Positions 3,304 through 18,540 of a DNA stretch of 18,540 bases are shown in pieces (position 1 is the stretch's first letter; every line of letters begins with the position of its first letter). The translations under genes were made by a program, and so were the position numbers. Source of the DNA: Jimgerdemannia flammicorona (Eukaryota; Mucoromycota; Endogonomycetes; Endogonales; Endogonaceae); the NCBI GenBank assembly GCA_003990745.1, contig RBNI01002428.1, forward strand, positions 1-18,540, in the 5' to 3' direction. The notes under the pieces were generated by a model. It was given only the letters and a program-made list of their open reading frames with translations. It had not been told where the DNA came from and searched no databases.

Positions 3304-4488
3304 TTTTTTTTTTATTTTTTTTTTATTTTTATAGTCTCTTGAACATTACTATTTTTATCAGTCTATCAAATATAAATATAGTACTCCAGCCCACTATCCA
3401 GCCCCCTATCCAATTCCCCTAGAGGGGTCCCCCCCCACACCCTTATGCTTAAAGACCACCTCACTATCTGCCACTATAACTCTCCCTCCACTCTACCCAC
3501 AAATCTTCTTCACTTACATTACTGATAACCCCCTGCAGACTCTATCCCAGCCACCAATCCATCAATACATCTACCATCAATCCTTTCCATCATACTAGTC
3601 ACTTCCCCAAACTCAATTATCTCTTCTCCTCAAAAACAAACAGCCAGTATCTAGCCAGCCCCATCTATATAGCTAAAGCTCATTTAACTATAAGCTACTT
3701 ATTTCCAATCTCTCCCCCAATCTATCTCTCAAATCTCCCCATATACCTTACTCATCAATCCCCCTACTCACCACTCTCAGTTGAGTTCTAACTGCTAACC
3801 AAAAGTCTCCAAGCACCTCATACTCCCTAAGTCAATATTCTGGTATCTGTATAAAATCTCCTTCCTATTCTACATTATAGTACTTCTAATACTCAAATTG
3901 TCTCCCCTCTATAAGGTGGCCTGAGCTAAAGTTAAGCATGATATTTCTTCTCAGCAAGTACTATTATACTACTCAGAACATAGGCAGCATCTAGTACTAC
4001 ACCTCTACACTCTAGGTCCAGACTCTATTCTAGTCCCATTTTTCTCCAATATCTACTATCTGCCAGCCACTAGACCATACATCCTGTCCTAACCCTCTCT
4101 GGCACTCTACTCTATTACTAATATTGAAGTCAATACAGTTCCATCTCTACATTACCACCCCCTGCCAGCAAAGACTGATATAGTGTACTCTATCAACTAC
4201 CTCTATTAGAAGTTCTTATACTGTATACATCTACTATTCTGAAGCCCAATCAATTACAATAGATCTCCTGACAAGCCTCTTGGTGAAAATCTTATTTCCC
4301 AGATACCTAGCCACTCCCCCTCAGTTCTATAGCTCTCTTCAGCCACTATGTTCTCAGATAATGAAGCCTCTTCAGGAAGTCAACTAGCTAAAGACCTCTT
4401 CTTTCCACTGATAATAACAAAATCCCCCAAATAATCTGACTTCTTCTCTCAGCCCAGATCTAGTCCTAAGCTAGCTTCAAAAGCCTCT
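3304..4488 (-). pseudogene. LINE 3' portion: end of ORF2 and 3' UTR
   Basis: LINE sequence continuing beyond the nested LTR, read from 4488 down to the poly(A) at 3304. Joined across the insertion the frame stays that of ORF2 (about 6532 to 4488), but stops are dense and I could not place conserved thumb, zinc-knuckle or RNase H motifs. A C9 run and a palindromic CCCCTAGAGGGG lie near 3417-3439. CpG is almost absent. Confidence 0.6.
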
Positions 4489-9028: not shown

Positions 9029-10956
9029 AACTCTATATTTCTCTCCTCTCTAGCCAAGTCACATCCATGTGCTACATCAGTCTCTACCTCCTAAACCTGC
9101 TTAGCCTCCAGTCCCACCAGAAGTTTGTCTATTACTACATCATTCTTCAATTCCATCTCCTCCCAGTACTCCAGGCAAGCTTCTTACTAAATCTTCAGCC
9201 TATGTCGCTGTTCCCACCAACAGACTGCTCTCTCCCTAATAGCCACTACTATCTCAGCCTCTCTTGCCTCATCCACCTCATAGCCTTCCTCATCTAGAAA
9301 AACTGCCAATACCTCTATCATCAAGGCCTCTATAATACTTTCTTCCTACAGTACCCTTATCTAGTGCTCTTTGCTGATAACTTACAAAACCACATCCCCC
9401 ATCTCCTCAGCCACTAAGTTGTTCATCACTCAGCACATCCACTATAAGTCCCCAATCTCTTTGCCCATAGAGATCACTAGTTGGCCAGCCTCCAGCATTA
9501 CTGTATCTACCCCTATACTTGCAGACTTATCTCACTCCTCCTCAGGAATATCCACTAGCTCATCCCCTCTAATCTCAATTACTTGCTCTCTACTCACCAT
9601 CTCAGGTACTCTAAACCAAACTTAGTGAGTCCCCATCATCTCCACATCCTCTCCAGCCCTCTGCCTTACAACTCCAGACCTTTTTTCCAAATCTATACTC
9701 TCCTCCCATATCTCCAGTATGCCATCATTATAGAGAGCCTGGTCCCTTGCCTCCTGGCTCTCATTTACAGTCTTCACACTCCTCTGCACCTTAACATCTA
9801 CCCAGACACTCTTCCAAGTACTCCCTACAGCACTATTAGAGCTCAGTACCACCTTCTCCTTTACATTCTCCTTCAAACTAGTAAGTAACTCTCTCTGCCT
9901 CTTATGCCTCTGTATGCTCTCCAACTGCCCCTTATCCATCTGAATGTGCTTTCCATCCACCACTTCCAAGTGAATTGAGTCTACATATGTCTGCTATATC
10001 TTGGTCTGCTGCTCCAACATACCACCGAGCTCCTTCAGCACCTCTATCAGATCCTTCTTCTCCTCTATACTCTCTTTTACTCTCATCATCTTACAGATGA
10101 ATGCTCCCTATAGCAGTACTGAGGACCAGTCTCTCAGCTTCCCTATAGCCTCCCTCCCAGCCAACCAGAGTCTGACATTCATATCTTCTGTCCTGAACAA
10201 AGTCTCCTCTCAGACCTGTAAGCTGATATCAATTACCTCATTATACTCTACTATAACCTCCTCTACTCTCCTCCTTATCTTGACTGTTGTCATCATGGGC
10301 ACTATCTCTACTAGTAACTAGACCACTCTGGAGTCTTACCTCAGACAGTGAGTCATTGGAACCACAATCTCTCCTATAGTCAGCTCTGTCTTCATTGTCT
10401 TCTCTAAAGGAGTAGCCTTCTCAAAGCCTACCTTCACTCCTTCAAGCCCCTTCAGGAACTTTACTGAGGCCACTCTAGCCATCTGCTTCAAGATCAGCCC
10501 CAGAACTATCTTCACTATCACTGCTAAGTCCTGGAAGCACAATATGACTACAAACTCCGCAATCAATTTCTTGAGTAATAGGATTACTGCCAGGCCTATC
10601 ACACTATCAGCCAGATCCCCCTGCTCCTGATGATCTCTCTGTATAGTACTACTATTAGCTGTCACATCTCTTTTTTTTTCTAAATATCTCATTATACTAC
10701 CATCAGCAATCATATCACTTCCCCCAGCTATAGCTCCTCCTGCCCCTATATCTACTCCCCTAGACAAAGAATCTCCTGCTCTCTCCAGGGTAGTCTTGTC
10801 TTTTCTCTCAGCTATATCAGTCCAAGCATCTGCTGGCCAGCCTCTCCCCTTCACCTTATCAGCAAAGCTAGAGAGATCAGATCTACTCTCACTTCCACCA
10901 GATACCAGCTCTCCTTCAGACTCTTCCCTACTATTCATATCTTCAAAAACACTCAT
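9025..10956 (-). pseudogene. LINE ORF1 (RNA-binding/gag-like), stop-interrupted
   Basis: 644 codons in a single frame from ATG 10956 (MSVFEDMNSREESEG...) to TGA 9027-9025, interrupted only by TAG/TAA/TGA, the first at 10336-10338. In LINEs this protein binds the element RNA and helps form the ribonucleoprotein. The N-terminus is acidic and Ser-rich. The middle (about 10090-9620) is Lys/Glu/Gln-rich and looks coiled-coil (KGQLESIQRHKRQRELL, SLKENVKEKVV). I see no CCHC zinc knuckle. The frame remains open upstream of 10956 right up to the insertion junction at 11130, with no other in-frame ATG, so the true start may have been lost by 5' truncation. Confidence 0.75.
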
Positions 10957-11130
10957 TTCTAGGTCATAACTCCTCTCTATATACTGCCAGCCAAATACTC
11001 CAGATCTATCTGACTCAGTACATCTATTAGGACTCTTGCTTGATGATATTTTACTTGTATCTTTTCTCTGAGTTGTATCAAAGAGTATTGCTAGAAGTTT
11101 TATATAATGTAAATTATACCAGAGAAAGGT

Positions 11131-12123
11131 ATATCATCTATACCTCTAGACTACTCTTAAAATAGAACCAAAAACTCTATCTTCTTAATATGAGTAAAAT
11201 AGAGAATAGCTACCAGTATACTACAACCTTGTAATATCTAGTACTATAATCTACTGAAATATACTAATAGTGAATCTAATGAAAATAATATATCTCTTCT
11301 CTATTCATCTATATCATATCTAGCATATGAGATAGTTGATACTATTCTGTAAGATAGTGATATAGTTCTAACATATTACTATATGAATAAATAGAGAGAT
11401 ATAATCCAAGAACTACTCTTTCTCGATAACTACTTTATCAGAGATAATATCATCAATAATGACCTCATCAAAGAATATCCAGATAGTGACTAAACTTATA
11501 AATAGCATAGCAGTCAGTTGATCTCTTAATATATCAGATTTCACTTATACTATATAACTATATTTTAACTTATCAAAGTACTAAAGTATTATATCTATAT
11601 TTAGTATAGTCTAGATAGTCTCCTATTAGAATAAATACCTACTCCTCCAGACCTTAGCAACTTAGATAAGAATAGATGAATAAGTCAAGAACATTTCTTT
11701 ACAAATATCCCTTCACATACTATTTCTAGTAATAGCCAATAGTAATATTATAAATAATAAATAAACTTATTTAATAACTCTCAAACTACTCTTAGACAAA
11801 TCTATAATATAGTAGGTCTCACTCCAAACTAGATCCCAAAATTTTCTAATTAGATATTGTCTATAGTAATAAGTTGATTTAACTAAGTTAGTTTTAGTTT
11901 CTTGAAATTTCTAAAATATAGAAAATTCTGAACATTCAGAATAAGTCTGAAAAAGGACTTTAGTTGAGATATCAATACAATCTTAAAATCAATAAGTATA
12001 AAAGATATACTCTATATATAATTGATCTTGATCTTAAGAAAATGATCTTTCAGAATATTTAGAACTTCTAGAGAAATTCTTTCAGGACTATGTAACTATA
12101 CTCTAAGAAAGAAATCTCTTATA
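11131..12123 (+). mobile_element. Older 3' LTR, right part
   Basis: Resumes at the LINE target duplication (11131-11142) and aligns with about 5478-6524 of the young LTR to a mutated terminus CTTATA (12118-12123, for CTTACA). The end of the U3 ORF is recognisable (stop TAA 11491-11493, 7 nt shorter than in the young copy since about 11147). The U5 hairpin segment is at about 11880-12120. Changes are both C-to-T and G-to-A. Confidence 0.88.
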
Positions 12124-12285
12124 TATAGCCATTCTTATTAGTATAAGAACCCAAAAGTAATATCTAGACTCTGTTATATTAGACAACTTAGTACTCAGTA
12201 CTTTCTCAAGAACTCAGAACTTAGGACCAATAGTTACTATTAATTATCTATAATATATTAATTATATTAGAATATAGTTTTATAA
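12124..12285. other. AT-rich flank without features
   Basis: Sequence after the old LTR terminus. If that unit is a 3' LTR, this is the host or older-repeat DNA it landed in. I see no frame or repeat. Confidence 0.4.
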
Positions 12286-13263
12286 TATAATCTTATATAA
12301 TTTATTATTTAAAATCTTATTTATTTTATCTTTTAAAAAAATAATAAGAAAACTCTTTTTAAATATATAAATATATATAATATATTATTAATATACTGAA
12401 TTCAAATATTAAAACAATGATATTTTGTATAAAGAAGGCTATTTAAGTATACTAAGTATACTTTATACTCATAATAAATTATAATTTATTTATTAATTAG
12501 ATTAGTTATAGTTGAAATTTTATAAATTATTATAGTATTAAATATAAGGAGAATAAATAGATACTATATAGAACAGACTGATATTAGGTAACTAGAAGTA
12601 TATAGTATCTCTAATAAAACAAAAATTAATTATTTTGGATTCTATATATAATATCTATCTTTTTCTATTATCTTTAAATTTTATAGTCAATCAATATTAT
12701 TTATTTTTTTCTAAATTAAAAATGCTGCAAAACTACTTTAAACTAACTATAAATACTCAAATAGTGTATTATTATTATCTTAAATATCTAAGATATATAC
12801 TATAAAATTGAAATAAAGATATGAAATATTACTTAATATAGTTATGTGATATTGATTGACTAAAATTTAAAGATAATAGAAAAAGATATATATTATATGC
12901 AGAATTCAAAATAATTGATTTTTGTTTTATTAGAGGATACTATATACTTCTAGTTATCTAATATCAGTCTGTTCTATATGATATCTATTTTTTCTTCTAT
13001 TATTCATATATATTTAATAATATAATAATTTATATAACCTTCAACAATATCTAATCTATTTAATAAATAAATTATAATTTATTATGAATAGAAAGTATTC
13101 TTAAATAGCCTTTCTTAGACAAAATATCATTACTTTAATATTTGAATTCAGTATATTAATAATATATTATATATATTTATATATATTTAAAAAGAGTTTT
13201 TTTATTATTTTTTTAAATAATAAAATAAATAAGATTATAAAAAATAAATTATATAAGATTATA
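12286..13263. repeat. Foldback structure: two ~415-bp inverted arms, 148-bp spacer
   Basis: Left arm 12286-12699 and right arm 12848-13263 are reverse complements with modest divergence. Matching landmarks: ATAATCTTATATAA at the outer end, ACTGAATTCAAATATTAAA, ATAAATTATAATTTATTTATTAA, AGAACAGACTGATATTA, ACTAGAAGTATATAGTATC, and GTCAATCAATAT at the inner end. The spacer 12700-12847 is AT-rich and empty. No ORF. It may be a MITE-like or foldback transposon, or an inverted duplication of a decayed repeat. I saw no clear target duplication. Confidence 0.85.
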
Positions 13264-14200
13264 GAGAAATATTAAAAGAATAACTATAATAAGTTTTAAA
13301 TATATATCTCAATTTATTATTTATTTATTAAATCAAGAAATTTATAAATAATTTTATTCCAAAACTAAATCAATAATTTTTTTTAAGAAATTTTTTAAAG
13401 ATAAAATAAAAATTTAAAAATAATAAATTTAATAAAGCATAGGTTCAGTTTTGGAATATATTGTATTATATTTAGCTATAACTTCAATCTATATTAATAT
13501 CCTCTATACTGAGTATATTATAATCTTAGCTCTACTTTTTTCTCTTAAGAATAAAGTAGTATTCTTTCTTATCAAGAACTCTCAGATCTGACTTATTAAT
13601 AATTCTAGTCTAATCAACTTAAAATACAAGTAGAGTATCTCTATCTAATACTAGATCCTGAAAGTGACACTTGAAGTATATCTTTATAAAATATACTTAA
13701 AATATAATATTTTCTTATAAAACTTAGAATCTAAGATTAATAGTTTATTTTAAATTAGATATAATATATTAAATTTATCAGTATATAGTTTTATTATACT
13801 TATAGTTCTAATATAAATTTCTTTTATATATACTAAAATAAAGCTAAGAATATATTTCTTTTAGAAGTTTTTCAAAATTTCTTAATACTAAAATCTTTCT
13901 TTAAGTTACTATTAGAAATGCTTAATTATTTTTATTTTATACAAACTAGAATTGTTATAGAGTAATATTAAAAGTAAACAAGACATTTAAATTATTTGTT
14001 ATACATATTATATTTATCTATATATATTTATGAATAATTTTATTTTATTTTGTTTTATTTTTAATGATTTAAATTTATTATAATTAGTTAAATTAATATA
14101 TTTCATTTATAAATTTATTCTATATAATAATTTATATTAGTAGGCTAATTCAAATCAATCGAAAGTCTAAAATAGTATAATAAGGTTAATAAAATATACA
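13264..14200. other. Very AT-rich decayed DNA, no gene
   Basis: Almost no CpG and no coding frame. The only structure seen is a short inverted repeat, ATTCCAAAACTAAAT (13356-13370) against GTTCAGTTTTGGAAT (13443-13457), pairing at 13 of 15 positions. The AT-rich block ends sharply near 14200. Confidence 0.6.
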
Positions 14201-14446
14201 ATGAAAGAATTAGTCAGAGATAGCAGGCAACGGAGGCTAATTCGGCCTTTTTTGTAATTGGGCGAGGACGACGTAATGATTGTGTGACGTTTTCATTTTT
14301 GGGGGGTTCAAAACAAATATTTTTCAGCAAGCAGTCGGTTTCCCTGTTTGAGCCGGTCGAGTAGTATCAAGCCAAAGTTTGCGGCATAGGGCATGGCAGC
14401 TGTTGGTCGGTAACTATGTGGAAGATACTTCGCTACTTATTTCGAT

Positions 14447-14635
14447 ATGGAGTGTGTGTGTTCGCTTGCGAATCGCCTTGACAAGACTCAAACGAAATGG
14501 GCCGCGACTGTTGTATCGGGGACAACCACCTTATACCTTGCGCTTATATATTGGTTAAATATCTATATGCAGATAAGTATTTCATATCAACGTGGTGTTT
14601 CTTGCATAATATTTGAAGTCCGAACCGCCTACTGA
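14447..14635 (+). CDS. Possible small membrane protein (62 codons)
   Basis: ATG 14447 to TGA 14633. The peptide MECVCSLANRLDKTQTKW is followed by a hydrophobic stretch (AATVVSGTTTLYLALIYW) that could span a membrane. It lies in the first CpG-rich DNA after the AT-rich block and stops 24 bp before the ribozyme. No family is recognised and no promoter or intron supports it, so chance is quite possible. Confidence 0.2.
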   Translation: MECVCSLANRLDKTQTKWAATVVSGTTTLYLALIYWLNIYMQISISYQRGVSCIIFEVRTAY

Positions 14636-14645
14636 CTTTACTTTT

Positions 14646-14666
14646 GACCGGTTCCTTATGCCGGTC
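14646..14666 (+). promoter_or_regulatory. Competing hairpin over the ribozyme cleavage site
   Basis: GACCGG (14646-14651) pairs perfectly with CCGGTC (14661-14666), around TTCCTTATG. The 3' arm is the stem III strand and the cleavage triplet of the hammerhead, so the two folds exclude each other. ACCGGTTC also occurs twice (14647-14654, 14712-14719). Confidence 0.5.
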
Positions 14667-14717
14667 TTGGTTGCTATAAACCAACTGATGAGCCCCTTAA
14701 GCAAGGGCGAAACCGGT
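14660..14717 (+). ncRNA. Type III hammerhead self-cleaving ribozyme
   Basis: All core parts are present in order. Stem III 5' strand GCCGG (14660-14664), cleavage triplet GUC ending at C14666, stem I UUGGUU (14667-14672) with loop GCUAUA and AACCAA (14679-14684), the invariant CUGAUGA (14685-14691), stem II GCCC (14692-14695) with loop CUUAAGCAA and GGGC (14705-14708), the invariant GAAA (14709-14712), and stem III 3' strand CCGGU (14713-14717). Stem I has 6 pairs, stem II 4, stem III 4 plus a G-U, plus the core U-A. Stem III is the open stem, so it is type III. Loop 1 GCU could contact loop 2 AGC (14700-14702). Predicted cleavage is between 14666 and 14667. The order and the exact invariant residues make chance unlikely; activity is not shown. 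Confidence 0.88.
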
Positions 14718-14924
14718 TCTATAGAAACACCTATTGGTGCGAGCCCCCCGTGCCCTTTCAGACATCCGTCCAAGATGCGCGAAAAGTCGTAGGCACCACC
14801 GCCACCCCCACAACCGCCACTGCTTGCACCACCCGCGTGCGTTAATTGTCGGCTCGAGGGGAGGTAACGTCGCATGAAATTCTAACACGAGTTCGGATTC
14901 CGCGTCAATCTCGCATACCAAAAG

Positions 14925-15506: not shown

Positions 15507-15750
15507 CGGTTGCTAAGGTTTCGAAAGGGTACGTATGTAATGACCGGGCGCGGTAGACAGTGCGGTGTGGGGGATAAGTTCTCGCACTGTTCTACTAAAA
15601 GTTGCGCATAGAGCTTTGCCGCTGAGGATATCGAAGCTCCTTAACTTGTGCGTTTCCTGTTAAGCGCGTGGTATTCGTTATTGCGTGCGTACTGGCTTTT
15701 GCTAATATCGACAATTTTTTTTTTTTTTTTTTTTTTTCCTTTTTCACCAA
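15507..15750 (+). repeat. Intron-like repeat module P, copy 1 (shortest)
   Basis: Shares with P2 and P3 the order: a leader ending TTCGAAAGG, donor-like GTACGTATG (15529), TAATGAC, AGTGCGG, TTCTCGCACTGTTCTACT, GTTGCGCAT, then GAAGCTCCTTA, GTTATTGCGTGCGTACT and TTTTGCTAATAT. Then come a 23-base T tract and CACCAAG (15744-15750), a possible acceptor. It lacks about 190 bp of the middle present in P2 and P3. Confidence 0.75.
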
Positions 15751-15792
15751 GCTCTCTGAGCACACCAACGTGCTAGATCGGTGCATGTCTTG

Positions 15793-15877
15793 GTAAGTTC
15801 CAGAGGATTAACCCTACATCACATAAAAATGTGAATTGACGTTTTTTTATATTTATTTTTACCTAGGCTAACAATAG
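15793..15877 (+). repeat. Intron-like repeat module Q, copy 1
   Basis: 85 bp with donor GTAAGT, shared CATCACATAAAA...TGAA, a T-rich stretch, branch-like GGCTAAC and acceptor AATAG. Homologous to 17952-18033. Similarity continues beyond the acceptor to GCGGTGGATAACCACGGCGG (about 15943-15962). Confidence 0.7.
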
Positions 15878-16392
15878 TTGGTAATCGCGACATAGCAAAT
15901 GCTGCCAAAAACAAGATTGCAAATTCCAAATATAATTACGTAGCGGTGGATAACCACGGCGGCTGCAGAGCTTTTATCAGAATCAGTGGCCGGTATTCCG
16001 ACGGCCGAAGCGAAGCTCGATGTAAACTTTCATATCGTAACGGATGTCGAGGAGACAGAGGGTGAACAAAAGAAGAAGGTTGCCGGCTGGAGTCTGAGGA
16101 AGACAACTACTAGATGCGGATTGCGAGAGTGATCGGGATGAAGCGAGTAAGGAGGAACAAGTCAAATTCATTTGGTATGTCAATCTGGTATTTGATGTCT
16201 TGAGAATTGTGTCATTTTTCTCTTTGCATTGTCATGCATCGCCAATCTACGTTGTATGTTAACCATTTTGCCCTTTGTAATTTACAGAACTTGAAGAACA
16301 TCTGTTCTGATGCCGAACTTGTAGATTTCGCGAGAAGTTTCCAAGTCGCAGAATCGTCAAACTGGTCAAATGCATTGGCCATCTTCGAATAA
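15878..16392 (+). pseudogene. Broken exon-like frames downstream of Q1
   Basis: One frame is open 15944-16132 (AAAELLSESVAGIPTAEAKL, ending at TGA). Another is open 15880-16063. A good intron follows (16175-16287, GTATGT...TTTACAG). The last exon-like frame 16288-16392 reads NLKNICSDAELVDFARSFQV, ending IFE and TAA. The frames on either side of that intron do not join without a stop, and I found no start codon serving them all. I read this as a decayed or misassembled multi-exon gene. No family is recognised. Confidence 0.3.
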
Positions 16393-16599
16393 CACAGTTG
16401 AAATGCTCCCCTGTCGGGACATTCACCTGAAATGGCAGGTACTTAAAGAGTCGTCGTAGTCCAAACCGTCATGACTCGGGATATGGTTCTAACCCTTTTT
16501 TTAACAACCATTCGTTCCTCCTTTCCTTCACCCGTCCATTTCTTTCTCCATCCCTTCCATCAACAGTCCTTTACCTCACACGTCGCTTCCTTCACCCGC
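16393..16599 (+). other. Intergenic, CT-rich toward P2
   Basis: No frame. The second half (about 16500-16590) is pyrimidine-rich, as before P1, and may be promoter sequence. Confidence 0.35.
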
Positions 16600-17022
16600 G
16601 CTTAGCAGGCTGTCACTGAGATTCTGAAAGGTATGTGCTTGTAATGACTCCATGTGGTAGGCAGTGCGGCGTAGGGGATATTTTCTCGCACTGTTCTACT
16701 GAATGTTGCGCATTCGCCGTTGTGCGCAACCGGAGGTAGTCTGGTGCAGCTTCCTCGGAGAGCGACTCCTCCACCCCTCCTTGTGGGTTGCTCGAAGGGT
16801 TGGCTTAAATCGGCGGTGCCTGGGGAACGTGGTTTCCAGGTCCCTCGTTCCTGGGGTATGTGGTTTCCAGGTCCCTCGGTCACCGTCGGACTCGTTGGCT
16901 TACCGGAGAATAACGAAGCTCCTTATTTCGTGCGTTACCTATTGACTGTGCGGTGTTCGTTATTACGTGCGTACTTGGCTTTTGCTAATATATATATATA
17001 TTATTTTGGTTTCTATCTCCAG
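16600..17022 (+). repeat. Intron-like repeat module P, copy 2 (fullest)
   Basis: Leader CTTAGCAGGCTGT...GAGATTCTGAAAG, donor-like GTATGT (16631), then the shared body to TTTTGCTAATAT (about 16979-16990) and a strong acceptor TTTCTATCTCCAG (17010-17022). As an intron it would be 392 nt. The body contains an 8-bp perfect stem (GTTGCGCA / TGCGCAAC around TTCGCCGTTG, about 16704-16729) and two 31-bp tandem units (16819-16849, 16850-16880). The frames across it (16703-16945, 16720-17028) are not conserved as protein in the other copies. Confidence 0.75.
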
Positions 17023-17533
17023 TTCTAGACCTTAATGAAACCCTTCATCACACAAGCCAAGATTGTAACGCCAAACCGAGCCAGCTTGACTATTTCGTTG
17101 CGGTCCAGCAGCCCATCAGCGACTACAATGTCCAATGCGTCGTTTACGGTCTATGTATGCGCCCTGCCGTCTCGGTTCCTCGTGTGGGCTGCGTTCATGT
17201 TGAGCTAGTAGTATTGATGGCGAGAACGCAGAGGTCGATTTGTAAGTACCCATTCATCTTCATTGTTGCTCTATGTTATATATACATTTACTTATTGACA
17301 TTCCTTTACACATATTTATGCCAAAGGCACTGCTTCGAGATGGAAGTCGTCTCCGGCGTAGCATCTTCAATCTCTCGCAAGTTCAGGATACACCATACTT
17401 CATAAAACGAGAGGAACCCTAAGACACCACCTGGGATATCTTTCAGAGTGATCCGGGATTTCACGAGAATTCCCTAACTAATATCACAGTGATAGACTGG
17501 TACAAGAAAGAGGCGTCGGCACCTTCTTCCTAA
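17023..17533 (+). pseudogene. Exon-like frames after P2
   Basis: From the P2 acceptor a frame stays open for 73 codons (LDLNETLHHTSQDCNAKPSQ ... MARTQRSI) to a donor GTAAGT at 17242. After a possible acceptor CCAAAG (17326) a second frame 17327-17533 reads ALLRDGSRLRRSIFNLSQVQ and later WDIFQSDPGFHENS, ending TAA, broken by one TAA at 17420. The two frames do not join in phase with the splice sites I chose. The composition looks coding, but no family is recognised. This is probably a damaged gene. Confidence 0.3.
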
Positions 17534-17806
17534 CAGTCGAAACTATTCGCCATTTTCGAACAAAAGGTACGCAATCTGGCCACGAGCTAATGTCAATAAT
17601 GACGCAAACAGTTGTGCGTCTTCCCCGCCGCGAAACAGGGCTCTCCGGGGTGCATATTTTCTCAACTTTGTTTTACGATTTTTTTGTCTGCAATGACGCT
17701 GTTATACAGCATCGCTTGATTTTCGCGACGTTGAGATATGTATGTCGAAATTTATGATTCCGCTTTTTTTTTTTTTTTTTTTTTTTTTTTATTTGATGAA
17801 ATTAGG
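17534..17806 (+). other. Unassigned stretch with a poly-T tract
   Basis: Contains a small intron-like segment (GTACGC at about 17568 to ACAG at 17611) and a 27-base T tract (17764-17790) followed by GATGAAATTAG, a possible acceptor at 17806. No supported gene. Confidence 0.3.
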
Positions 17807-17951
17807 CTTGCTCGGCCAGCACAAAGCGACCCTCACCGGTTTCAAAGGAAAGTTGGACGCCCAATGGCGCACGGGATAGTCATGAATCGTTGCAGTGATC
17901 ATGCTCTCCAAACCGTCGTTCTTCTGGCGTACGATATTGTTGCCTTACACA
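17807..17951 (+). pseudogene. Exon-like frame before Q2
   Basis: Open frame reading LARPAQSDPHRFQRKVGRPM then AHGIVMNRCSDHALQTVVLL, ending at the Q2 donor (17952). If Q2 is spliced, a stop follows within a few codons. No family is recognised. It may be the tail of a small or broken gene. Confidence 0.2.
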
Positions 17952-18033
17952 GTAAGTGTTTCAAGCGCGAATGACGATATGTCACATAAAAGGTTGAACT
18001 GAGGTTTTTTTTTTTTATCTTGGTTAACATTAG
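17952..18033 (+). repeat. Intron-like repeat module Q, copy 2
   Basis: 82 bp with donor GTAAGT, shared GTCACATAAAAGGTTGAACTG, a T12 run (18005-18016), branch-like GGTTAAC and acceptor ATTAG. Similarity to copy 1 continues downstream to GCGGTGGATAAGCACGGCGG (about 18103-18122). Confidence 0.7.
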
Positions 18034-18170
18034 ATGGACATTAGGTGGCACATACGGCGATATATATTCTGCAAAAGAGAAGATGGATAACACAATCATC
18101 CTGCGGTGGATAAGCACGGCGGCTGTCGAGGTGTCAGCGAAGGCAGCGATACTCTTCCTTTACTCCTCCT

Positions 18171-18540
18171 GCTTAGCGGTCTGTTGCTGAGATTCTGAAA
18201 GGTACGTGCTTGTTATGACTCCACGTGGTAGACAATGCGGCGTGGGATAAGTTCTCTCACCTTTCGGCTAAATGTTGCGCATTCGCCGTTGTGCGTAACC
18301 GGAGGTGGCCGTGCAGCTTCCTCGTATAGCCACGCCTTCACCCTCGCTCGAAGGGTTGGCTTAAATCGGCGTTGCCTGGGGTACGTGCCCTCGTTCCCGG
18401 GGGTATATGGCTTCCTGGTCCCTCGGTCACCGTCGGACTCGTTAGGATAACGAATCTCCTTATTCCGTGCGTTAACTGTTGACCATGCAGTGTTCGTTAT
18501 TGCTTGTGTATTTGACTCTGGCTAATATCCTTTTTTTTTT
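18171..18540 (+). repeat. Intron-like repeat module P, copy 3 (cut by window end)
   Basis: Leader GCTTAGCGGTCTGT...GAGATTCTGAAAG, donor-like GTACGT (18202), body as in P2 including GTTGCGCATTCGCCGTTG and GTCACCGTCGGACTCGTT, then GGCTAATATCC and the start of a T tract that runs off the window. It lies only about 50 bp after the end of Q2 similarity, so here Q precedes P, whereas in copy 1 P precedes Q. Confidence 0.75.

What the first reader, a model, noticed from the sequence alone, without database searches (positions are those of the whole stretch)
14660..14717. Complete type III hammerhead ribozyme motif in a probable fungal genome, outside any recognised element
Seen: every invariant core element (GUC, CUGAUGA, GAAA) in correct order with three base-paired stems and a possible loop-loop contact. 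Known: type III hammerheads occur in plant viroid-like RNAs and LTR-bearing retrozymes, and scattered hammerheads are known in many genomes. Inferred: here it sits just past the AT-rich/normal boundary, between two small putative genes, so it could trim a transcript leader, end an RNA, or be a remnant of a retrozyme or viroid-like RNA. Only one copy is in the window.
Basis: partly seen in the sequence, partly recalled or inferred. Interest (0 to 1): 0.88.

Follow-up and report, generated by a model that had tools for sequence, protein, structure and literature searches.

The report
Fungal hammerhead ribozymes beside splice signals
A fungal genome carries well over a hundred copies of a small RNA sequence built like a self-cutting ribozyme, and many of them sit just behind what looks like the front part of an intron, which suggests that RNA self-cutting and the splicing machinery may work together, or compete, to form RNA ends.

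Summary
A complete type III hammerhead lies at 14660-14717 (+), predicted to cut after C14666. Rfam RF00008 gives 32.0 bits, below its 48.5 cut-off, but covariation across 59 genomic copies supports the fold. It is not a lone motif: patterns find 112 + 16 copies of two variants in the same fungal genome, and 0 for reversed control patterns. Flanks differ between subfamilies, and no retrozyme-like LTR pair was found in 47 loci.

Unexpectedly, many copies share a second module upstream: a 5'-splice-site-like word, about 60 nt, a branch-point-like CTRAC, then the ribozyme (26 of 58 copies in a strict test, under 1% of random positions). In the window's subfamily the word is ATAAGT (10 of 11 copies). 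AUAAGU is the unusual 5' splice site at which Aspergillus telomerase RNA stops the spliceosome after its first step (PMC4299874).

Best reading: a dispersed family of noncoding transcripts, or mobile elements, with a "cut-instead-of-splice" 3'-end module. Ribozyme fold and family are near certain, the association with splice-like signals is strong, and the joint mechanism is inferred. No RNA data were available.

The parts
14660..14717 (+). type III hammerhead ribozyme; predicted cut between 14666 and 14667
   Evidence: sequence; RF00008 32.0 bits; covariation on 59 copies; 112 + 16 genomic pattern matches
14573..14579 (+). ATAAGTA, 5'-splice-site-like, preceded by CAG; first intron base A
   Evidence: ATAAGT in 10 of 11 copies of the window subfamily, ATAAGTA in 9 of 11; TRAGTA in 17 of 46 loci in the bin 120-80 nt before the core, against a mean of 2.1% per 40-nt bin elsewhere
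14632..14636 (+). CTGAC, branch-point-like (CTAAC in 8 of the 10 sister copies); ends 64 nt after the start of the 5' site and 30 nt before the cut
14646..14651 (+). GACCGG, 5' arm of a hairpin that would pair with 14661-14666 and compete with ribozyme stem III
   Evidence: predicted fold of 14641-14725; complement to the stem III strand upstream at p<=0.05 in 23 of 64 copies (window p 0.045)
14573..14666 (+). intron-like stretch from the 5' site to the ribozyme cut
   Evidence: mean pairwise identity, measured to within a few bases of the cut, 0.857 in 10 subfamily copies, against 0.651 in the 80 nt upstream (4 copies; 0.466 when shuffled) and 0.938 in the ribozyme (11 copies)
14305..14354 (+). 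short upstream block conserved in some copies of the window subfamily, about 220-270 nt before the 5' site; nature unknown
   Evidence: separate DNA matches within query 5-78 in 6 other loci

Best explanation
The window holds one member of a dispersed family of fungal noncoding transcription units, possibly carried by mobile elements. In the members that show the full module the RNA has, in order: a fast-changing 5' part, a 5'-splice-site-like sequence, about 60 nt, a branch-point-like sequence, and a type III hammerhead whose cut usually lies before the first AG that could serve as 3' splice site. Proposed working: the ribozyme cuts the nascent RNA and removes the 3' splice site and the downstream tail. 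The spliceosome can then do only its first step, which frees the upstream RNA with a defined 3' end at the 5' splice site. In the window's subfamily the A at intron position 1 would by itself block the second step, so there are two safeguards. In subfamilies with a normal GTGAGT site, self-cutting and full splicing would instead compete. The upstream hairpin that borrows the stem III strand would delay or gate cutting. Shown: ribozyme fold (by covariation), copy number, spacing and enrichment of the splice-like signals. Inferred: transcription, cleavage, spliceosome use, the product.
For: Covariation. Copy number against reversed controls. A 5'-site-like word and CTRAC at 45-80 nt spacing upstream of the cut in 26 of 58 copies, against 37 of 7,920 same-strand and 70 of 7,945 opposite-strand random positions; by eye the 26 fall into nine sequence groups. 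In five copies fetched after the motif had been defined, 4 of 5 have NTAAGTA and 1 of 5 GTCAGTA about the expected distance upstream (read by eye). In the window subfamily identity rises at the 5' site, and the first AG after the branch-like site lies 3' of the cut in 9 of 11 copies (the script took a nearer TTGAC as branch site in L056). In the strict set the same holds for 18 of 26; the script skips an AG touching the branch motif, as in four group II copies (CTAACAG), which I take to be too close to be used. Aspergillus niger telomerase RNA: AUAAGU stops the spliceosome after step one, and A1G makes spliced product dominant (PMC4299874, section 6 read).
Against: 32 of 58 copies fail the strict test. 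Strict CTRAC is present in only 1 of the 5 fresh copies; the others have CTTACTCAC or CTAATCAC. Copies are related, so counts are not independent. 8 of the 26 strict copies have an AG between branch site and cut, 4 of these only 4-8 nt before the cut, which could permit splicing. The first base is A, T, C or G by subfamily, and U or C at position 1 is not known to me to support step one well. In the paper cited, G1A in the S. pombe TER1 intron blocked the first step, so the effect depends on context. No RNA data; no Sm-like tract seen consistently before the 5' site. AATAAA downstream is only weakly enriched (16 of 44, against 6-11 of 35-42 in ten other bins). The longer predicted folds prefer the hairpin to the ribozyme.
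Confidence: 0.42

Rival explanations
1. Non-autonomous mobile elements carry the ribozyme for their own spread, as in retrozymes, Penelope-like elements or ribozyme SINEs; the splice-like signals are part of the element's transcript and have no special link to the ribozyme.
For: Dispersed copies in two large groups; the group II upstream region gives 25 matches (itself included), several of them fragments; some copies with G-to-A changes in the core. A review states that most data on genomic hammerheads point to retrotransposon propagation (PMC6155905, passages). C5981 has two same-strand copies 1,977 bases apart, both matching the window subfamily; their surroundings were not fetched.
Against: In window + 45 loci our model finds the 49 known copies and one weak extra match (L053, 24.1 bits, other strand), so neighbours occur only in C1034 and C635 and are of other sequence groups. 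Five of 47 loci have direct repeats of 60 bases or more nearby; none spans the ribozyme (flanks are cut short by contig ends in some). No contig of a ribozyme match listed is among those of the 150 best reverse-transcriptase matches (11,005 candidates, 150 scored; one contig, C2078, is, 9.6 kb away). Unlike subfamilies share little beyond the stretch from 5' site to stem III.
Confidence: 0.33
2. Ordinary introns with a ribozyme at the 3' end: A-first introns are U2-type AT-AC introns ending at the conserved TTTTGAC (14642-14648), GT introns end at an AG inside stem I, and the ribozyme regulates or follows splicing in a 5' leader.
For: ATAAGT plus a GAC 12 nt after the branch-like motif in the window subfamily; GTGAGT plus CTAAC plus CAG in group II copies.
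Against: TTTTGAC is also the hairpin arm and occurs with a non-A site (L022). T- and C-first copies (L012, L014-L016, L027) fit no intron class known to me. No frame in common was seen among the ORFs of 130 aa or more beside the ribozymes (by eye).
Confidence: 0.17
3. The splice-like motifs are inherited by descent with the ribozyme but are not used; the ribozyme alone ends or destabilises the RNA.
For: Relatedness of copies; 32 of 58 fail the strict module test.
Against: Spacing of 51-75 nt from 5' site to branch motif in the 26 strict copies, although the sequence between differs between groups (the test itself allows 45-80); NTAAGTA recurs in unlike subfamilies.
Confidence: 0.08

Closest known systems
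Spliceosomal cleavage of Aspergillus (and, recalled, Neurospora) telomerase RNA
   Same: AUAAGU 5' site and branch-like site, predicted first-step-only processing (PMC4299874, section 6)
   Different: the word hammerhead does not occur in that paper's main text; many loci here; no telomere-like string within the fetched upstream flanks (one in 47 loci, downstream); no consistent Sm-like tract (by eye)
Plant LTR retrozymes
   Same: type III hammerhead, many dispersed noncoding copies (PMC4918200, passages)
   Different: no ribozyme pair in LTR-like repeats found in 47 loci; PBS, PPT and TSD not searched; fungal host; splice-like module upstream
Intronic hammerheads of amniotes
   Same: hammerhead in intron-like context, proposed role in mRNA biogenesis (PMC6155905, passages)
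   Different: those are type I and in introns of a few named genes; here type III, over a hundred matches, in no identified gene
Rfam RF00008 Hammerhead_3
   Same: fold, core, order of stems
   Different: window 32.0 bits; 46 other matches at E<=10 with 21.2-45.3 bits, none over the 48.5 cut-off

Membership tests
Type III hammerhead ribozyme | CUGAUGA, GAAA and NUH in order, three stems, stem III open | tested here: met
Type III hammerhead ribozyme | Rfam RF00008 gathering score (a library cut-off rather than a defining property) | tested here: not met
   32.0 against 48.5 bits in the window; best in genome 45.3
Type III hammerhead ribozyme | self-cleavage | not testable with these tools
   needs in vitro transcription
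LTR retrozyme | two hammerheads in LTR direct repeats (697-776 bases between the cut sites in Jatropha) | tested here: not met
   0 of 47 loci; neighbours in C1034 and C635 are of unlike groups; the C5981 pair, 1,977 bases apart, was not examined
LTR retrozyme | tRNA-Met PBS, polypurine tract, target-site duplications | not tested
   not searched
Spliceosomal-cleavage (telomerase RNA type) 3' end | 5' site with step-two block (AUAAGU) and branch site | tested here: met
   window 14573-14579 and 14632-14636; ATAAGT in 10 of 11 subfamily copies
Spliceosomal-cleavage (telomerase RNA type) 3' end | Sm-like tract just before the 5' site | tested here: not met
   none before the window's site, by eye; T-rich ATTTTG seen only in some group II copies
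Spliceosomal-cleavage (telomerase RNA type) 3' end | step-one product in RNA | not testable with these tools
   no RNA data
Telomerase RNA | telomere template | tested here: inconclusive
   TTAGGG-type strings only once in 47 loci, 1.4 kb downstream of the ribozyme; telomere repeat of this fungus unknown

The most novel reading that the evidence does not exclude
A fungus has over a hundred noncoding RNA loci whose 3' ends are made jointly by a self-cleaving ribozyme and an arrested spliceosome: the hammerhead cuts between branch point and 3' splice site, with a competing hairpin as timer. This would be a ribozyme-enforced one-step splicing class outside telomerase RNA.
Probability: 0.3. Interest if true: 0.92.

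Novelty: new variant of a known kind. Interest (0 to 1): 0.68.

Why it matters
Genomic hammerheads have few established cellular roles. A large fungal family in which the predicted cut often falls between branch-like site and AG gives a direct, cheap test of whether ribozymes and the spliceosome are coupled. It could also extend spliceosomal 3'-end formation, which I know only from fungal telomerase RNA, to many loci. I found no open-access paper whose listed title or abstract joins fungal genomic hammerheads with splice signals (listings of searches; passages of four of the listed papers). Subscription papers and preprints were not searched.

Tried and rejected
Rfam gathering scan of the window and of 40 of the 45 loci (L011-L050; L051-L055 not scanned): nothing. 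Retrozyme layout: not found; the ribozyme regex was too strict and missed copies in C1034 and C635, so one search replaces that part. Association with reverse transcriptase: the 150 best RVT_1 matches share no contig with the ribozyme matches listed. Telomere template upstream: none. Common promoter words upstream of the module in 22 representative loci: nothing convincing. Shared protein-coding frame beside the ribozymes: none seen by eye. Pfam on ten window ORFs: nothing over a cut-off. Exact ribozyme pattern in viral contigs: 0. Species: not identified; a 386-aa ORF near copy L054 gave one unnamed relative, and the rRNA search did not complete. The first pair count used a structure string shifted by one column and is discarded; one search replaces it. 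One search stopped on a script error; one search replaces it. Dropped before counts: L021 from the module test (under 150 nt upstream); L066-L070 are not in A1 nor in the module test. Of the 27 places found I fetched 10.

Full report
What is there. The window (18,540 bases; contig C2428 of a 134.8-Mb, 7,754-contig assembly) has a complete type III hammerhead at 14660-14717 on the + strand. Nothing in the window passes an Rfam gathering score, but RF00008 matches with 32.0 bits, E 7.8e-5. The genome is fungal: 51 Zn2Cys6 domain matches, none in the 14 control genomes. The species was not identified.

It is one of many. RF00008 finds 46 matches at E<=10 in the genome, 36 of them at E<=0.01, best 45.3 bits, none over the cut-off. 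The window's own copy is not among them, since only 68 of 18,148 first-look candidates were scored. At that loose threshold the family also rings in 7 of 14 control genomes, over the cut-off in 0. Patterns with up to 3 mismatches are more telling: 112 matches for group I (33 nt; 49 of the listed places without mismatch) and 16 for group II, with 0 reversed-control matches. I fetched up to 3 kb of flank on each side for those 46 copies (45 regions) and short flanks for 15 more copies.

The fold is under selection, or was so in active lineages. On 59 copies (56 distinct: the window, the 46, 10 and two extra in C1034), 90.0% of cells in 15 pairs are standard pairs, 8 pairs change on both sides, and the covariation score is 0.213 against 0.131 in shuffles (0 of 500 as high) and at most 0.056 in slid structures. 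Stem I pairs in 277 of 280 cells, stem II in 162 of 164 (group I) and 73 of 75 (group II, own register), stem III in 275 of 336. Stem III is short in group II: its outer two pairs form in only 3 and 5 of 15.

A second module. Across subfamilies the stretch upstream of the ribozyme has two words in common. TRAGTA occurs in 17 of 46 loci in the bin 120-80 nt before the core, against 2.1% per bin elsewhere; CTAAC occurs in 9 of 47 and 11 of 47 loci in the two bins nearest the core, against 2.1%. A strict test (CTRAC ending 3-60 nt before the cut, a 5'-site-like word starting 45-80 nt before its end) is met by 26 of 58 copies, by 37 of 7,920 random same-strand positions and by 70 of 7,945 opposite-strand positions. 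By eye the 26 fall into nine sequence groups, so relatedness does not explain all of it. Five copies fetched afterwards have TTAAGTA, TTAAGTA, ATAAGTA, ATAAGTA and GTCAGTA about the expected distance upstream; at least three of these five look like one subfamily. Results against: 32 of 58 fail the strict test, and only 1 of the 5 fresh copies has a strict CTRAC.

The window's own subfamily. A DNA search with 14280-14660 finds, besides itself, 27 other places that match the 3' part of the query and 7 shorter matches. I fetched 10 of the 27. In the 11 copies aligned (window, L056-L065), ATAAGT is present in 10 and ATAAGTA in 9. Mean pairwise identity is 0.651 for the 80 nt upstream (4 copies with enough sequence; 0.466 when shuffled, so this part is related too), 0.857 from the 5' site to near the cut (10 copies) and 0.938 for the ribozyme (11 copies). 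The first AG after the branch-like site lies beyond the cut in 9 of 11 copies.

Why AUAAGU matters. In Aspergillus niger telomerase RNA the same AUAAGU site makes the spliceosome stop after step one, and changing A1 to G makes spliced product dominant (PMC4299874, section 6 read). The same paper reports that G1A in the S. pombe TER1 intron blocked the first step, and that GUCAGU, the site seen in one fresh copy here, inhibits the second step in several introns; both are context-dependent (passages). The corresponding Neurospora work is recalled, not read (not held). Here other subfamilies have T or C at position 1 (L012, L014-L016, L027), and 8 of 15 group II copies have GTGAGT. In the 11 group II copies with an assigned branch motif, the first AG counted by the script lies 2-13 nt beyond the cut (an AG touching the motif is skipped in four), so splicing and self-cutting would exclude each other.

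Competing hairpin. In the window GACCGG (14646-14651) can pair with CCGGTC (14661-14666), the strand needed for stem III; the longer folds prefer this hairpin. A complement of the stem III strand upstream scores at p<=0.05 against shuffles in 23 of 64 copies (about 3 expected), median p 0.095. I read this as a possible delay; it is weaker evidence than the rest.

Mobile element or gene family. Flanking homology around the ribozyme reaches about 1,500 bases in the longest of 497 collinear pairs and is far shorter in most of the 100 pairs listed; it is cut short by what was fetched. The group II upstream region also occurs as fragments (25 matches, itself included). Five of 47 loci have direct repeats of 60 bases or more near the ribozyme, none spanning it. 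In the window and 45 loci our own model finds the 49 known copies and one weak extra match. Copies of unlike subfamilies can lie about 1 kb apart on one strand (C1034: three; C635: two). C5981 has two same-strand copies of the window subfamily 1,977 bases apart, not examined. AATAAA downstream is only slightly more common than elsewhere (16 of 44). I cannot decide between fast-changing ncRNA genes and old mobile elements.

Verdict. Ribozyme structure and family: near certain. Association with splice-like signals: strong. Joint use for 3'-end formation: a testable inference, confidence about 0.4. Literature: open-access search only (listings). Three hammerhead papers have no word beginning with 'fung' in their main text; one of them places type III hammerheads mostly in plants and their circular RNAs, with types I-III in prokaryotes. 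A fourth treats fungal viroid-like RNAs and circular viruses; the passages shown name no fungal genomic hammerhead family.

Noticed in passing
window 15536-18528: Three partial copies of a repeat about 1.1-1.6 kb apart (families D3, D5; two copies in D7, D11, D14), two of them followed by poly-T runs.
   Followed up: no
window 11000-14250: AT-rich island (GC 11-28%) with sharp edges in otherwise mostly 40-50% GC sequence, like the mutated repeat islands of fungi.
   Followed up: no
window 9622-10956, -; L027; L054:4110-5267: Minus-strand ORFs in the window resemble, by eye only, repeat-encoded ORFs near ribozyme copies L027 and L054; the L054 ORF has one unnamed relative, 63% identical over 33% of the query.
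   Followed up: partly
L026:1367-1429, 2306-2369, 3306-3370 (+): Three hammerheads of unlike sequence groups within 2 kb on one strand.
   Followed up: partly
G000 C5981:3111 and 5088 (+), not fetched: Two same-strand copies of the window subfamily 1,977 bases apart, the only such pair seen; could be a tandem element.
   Followed up: no
window 14652-14660 (loop of the hairpin): TTCCTTATG resembles the recalled U12 branch-site consensus; the 5' site is not U12-like, so taken as chance.
   Followed up: no
L050, L051, L052, L053, L054: Ribozyme copies in which the GAAA of the core reads AAAA, suggesting decayed repeats.
   Followed up: no
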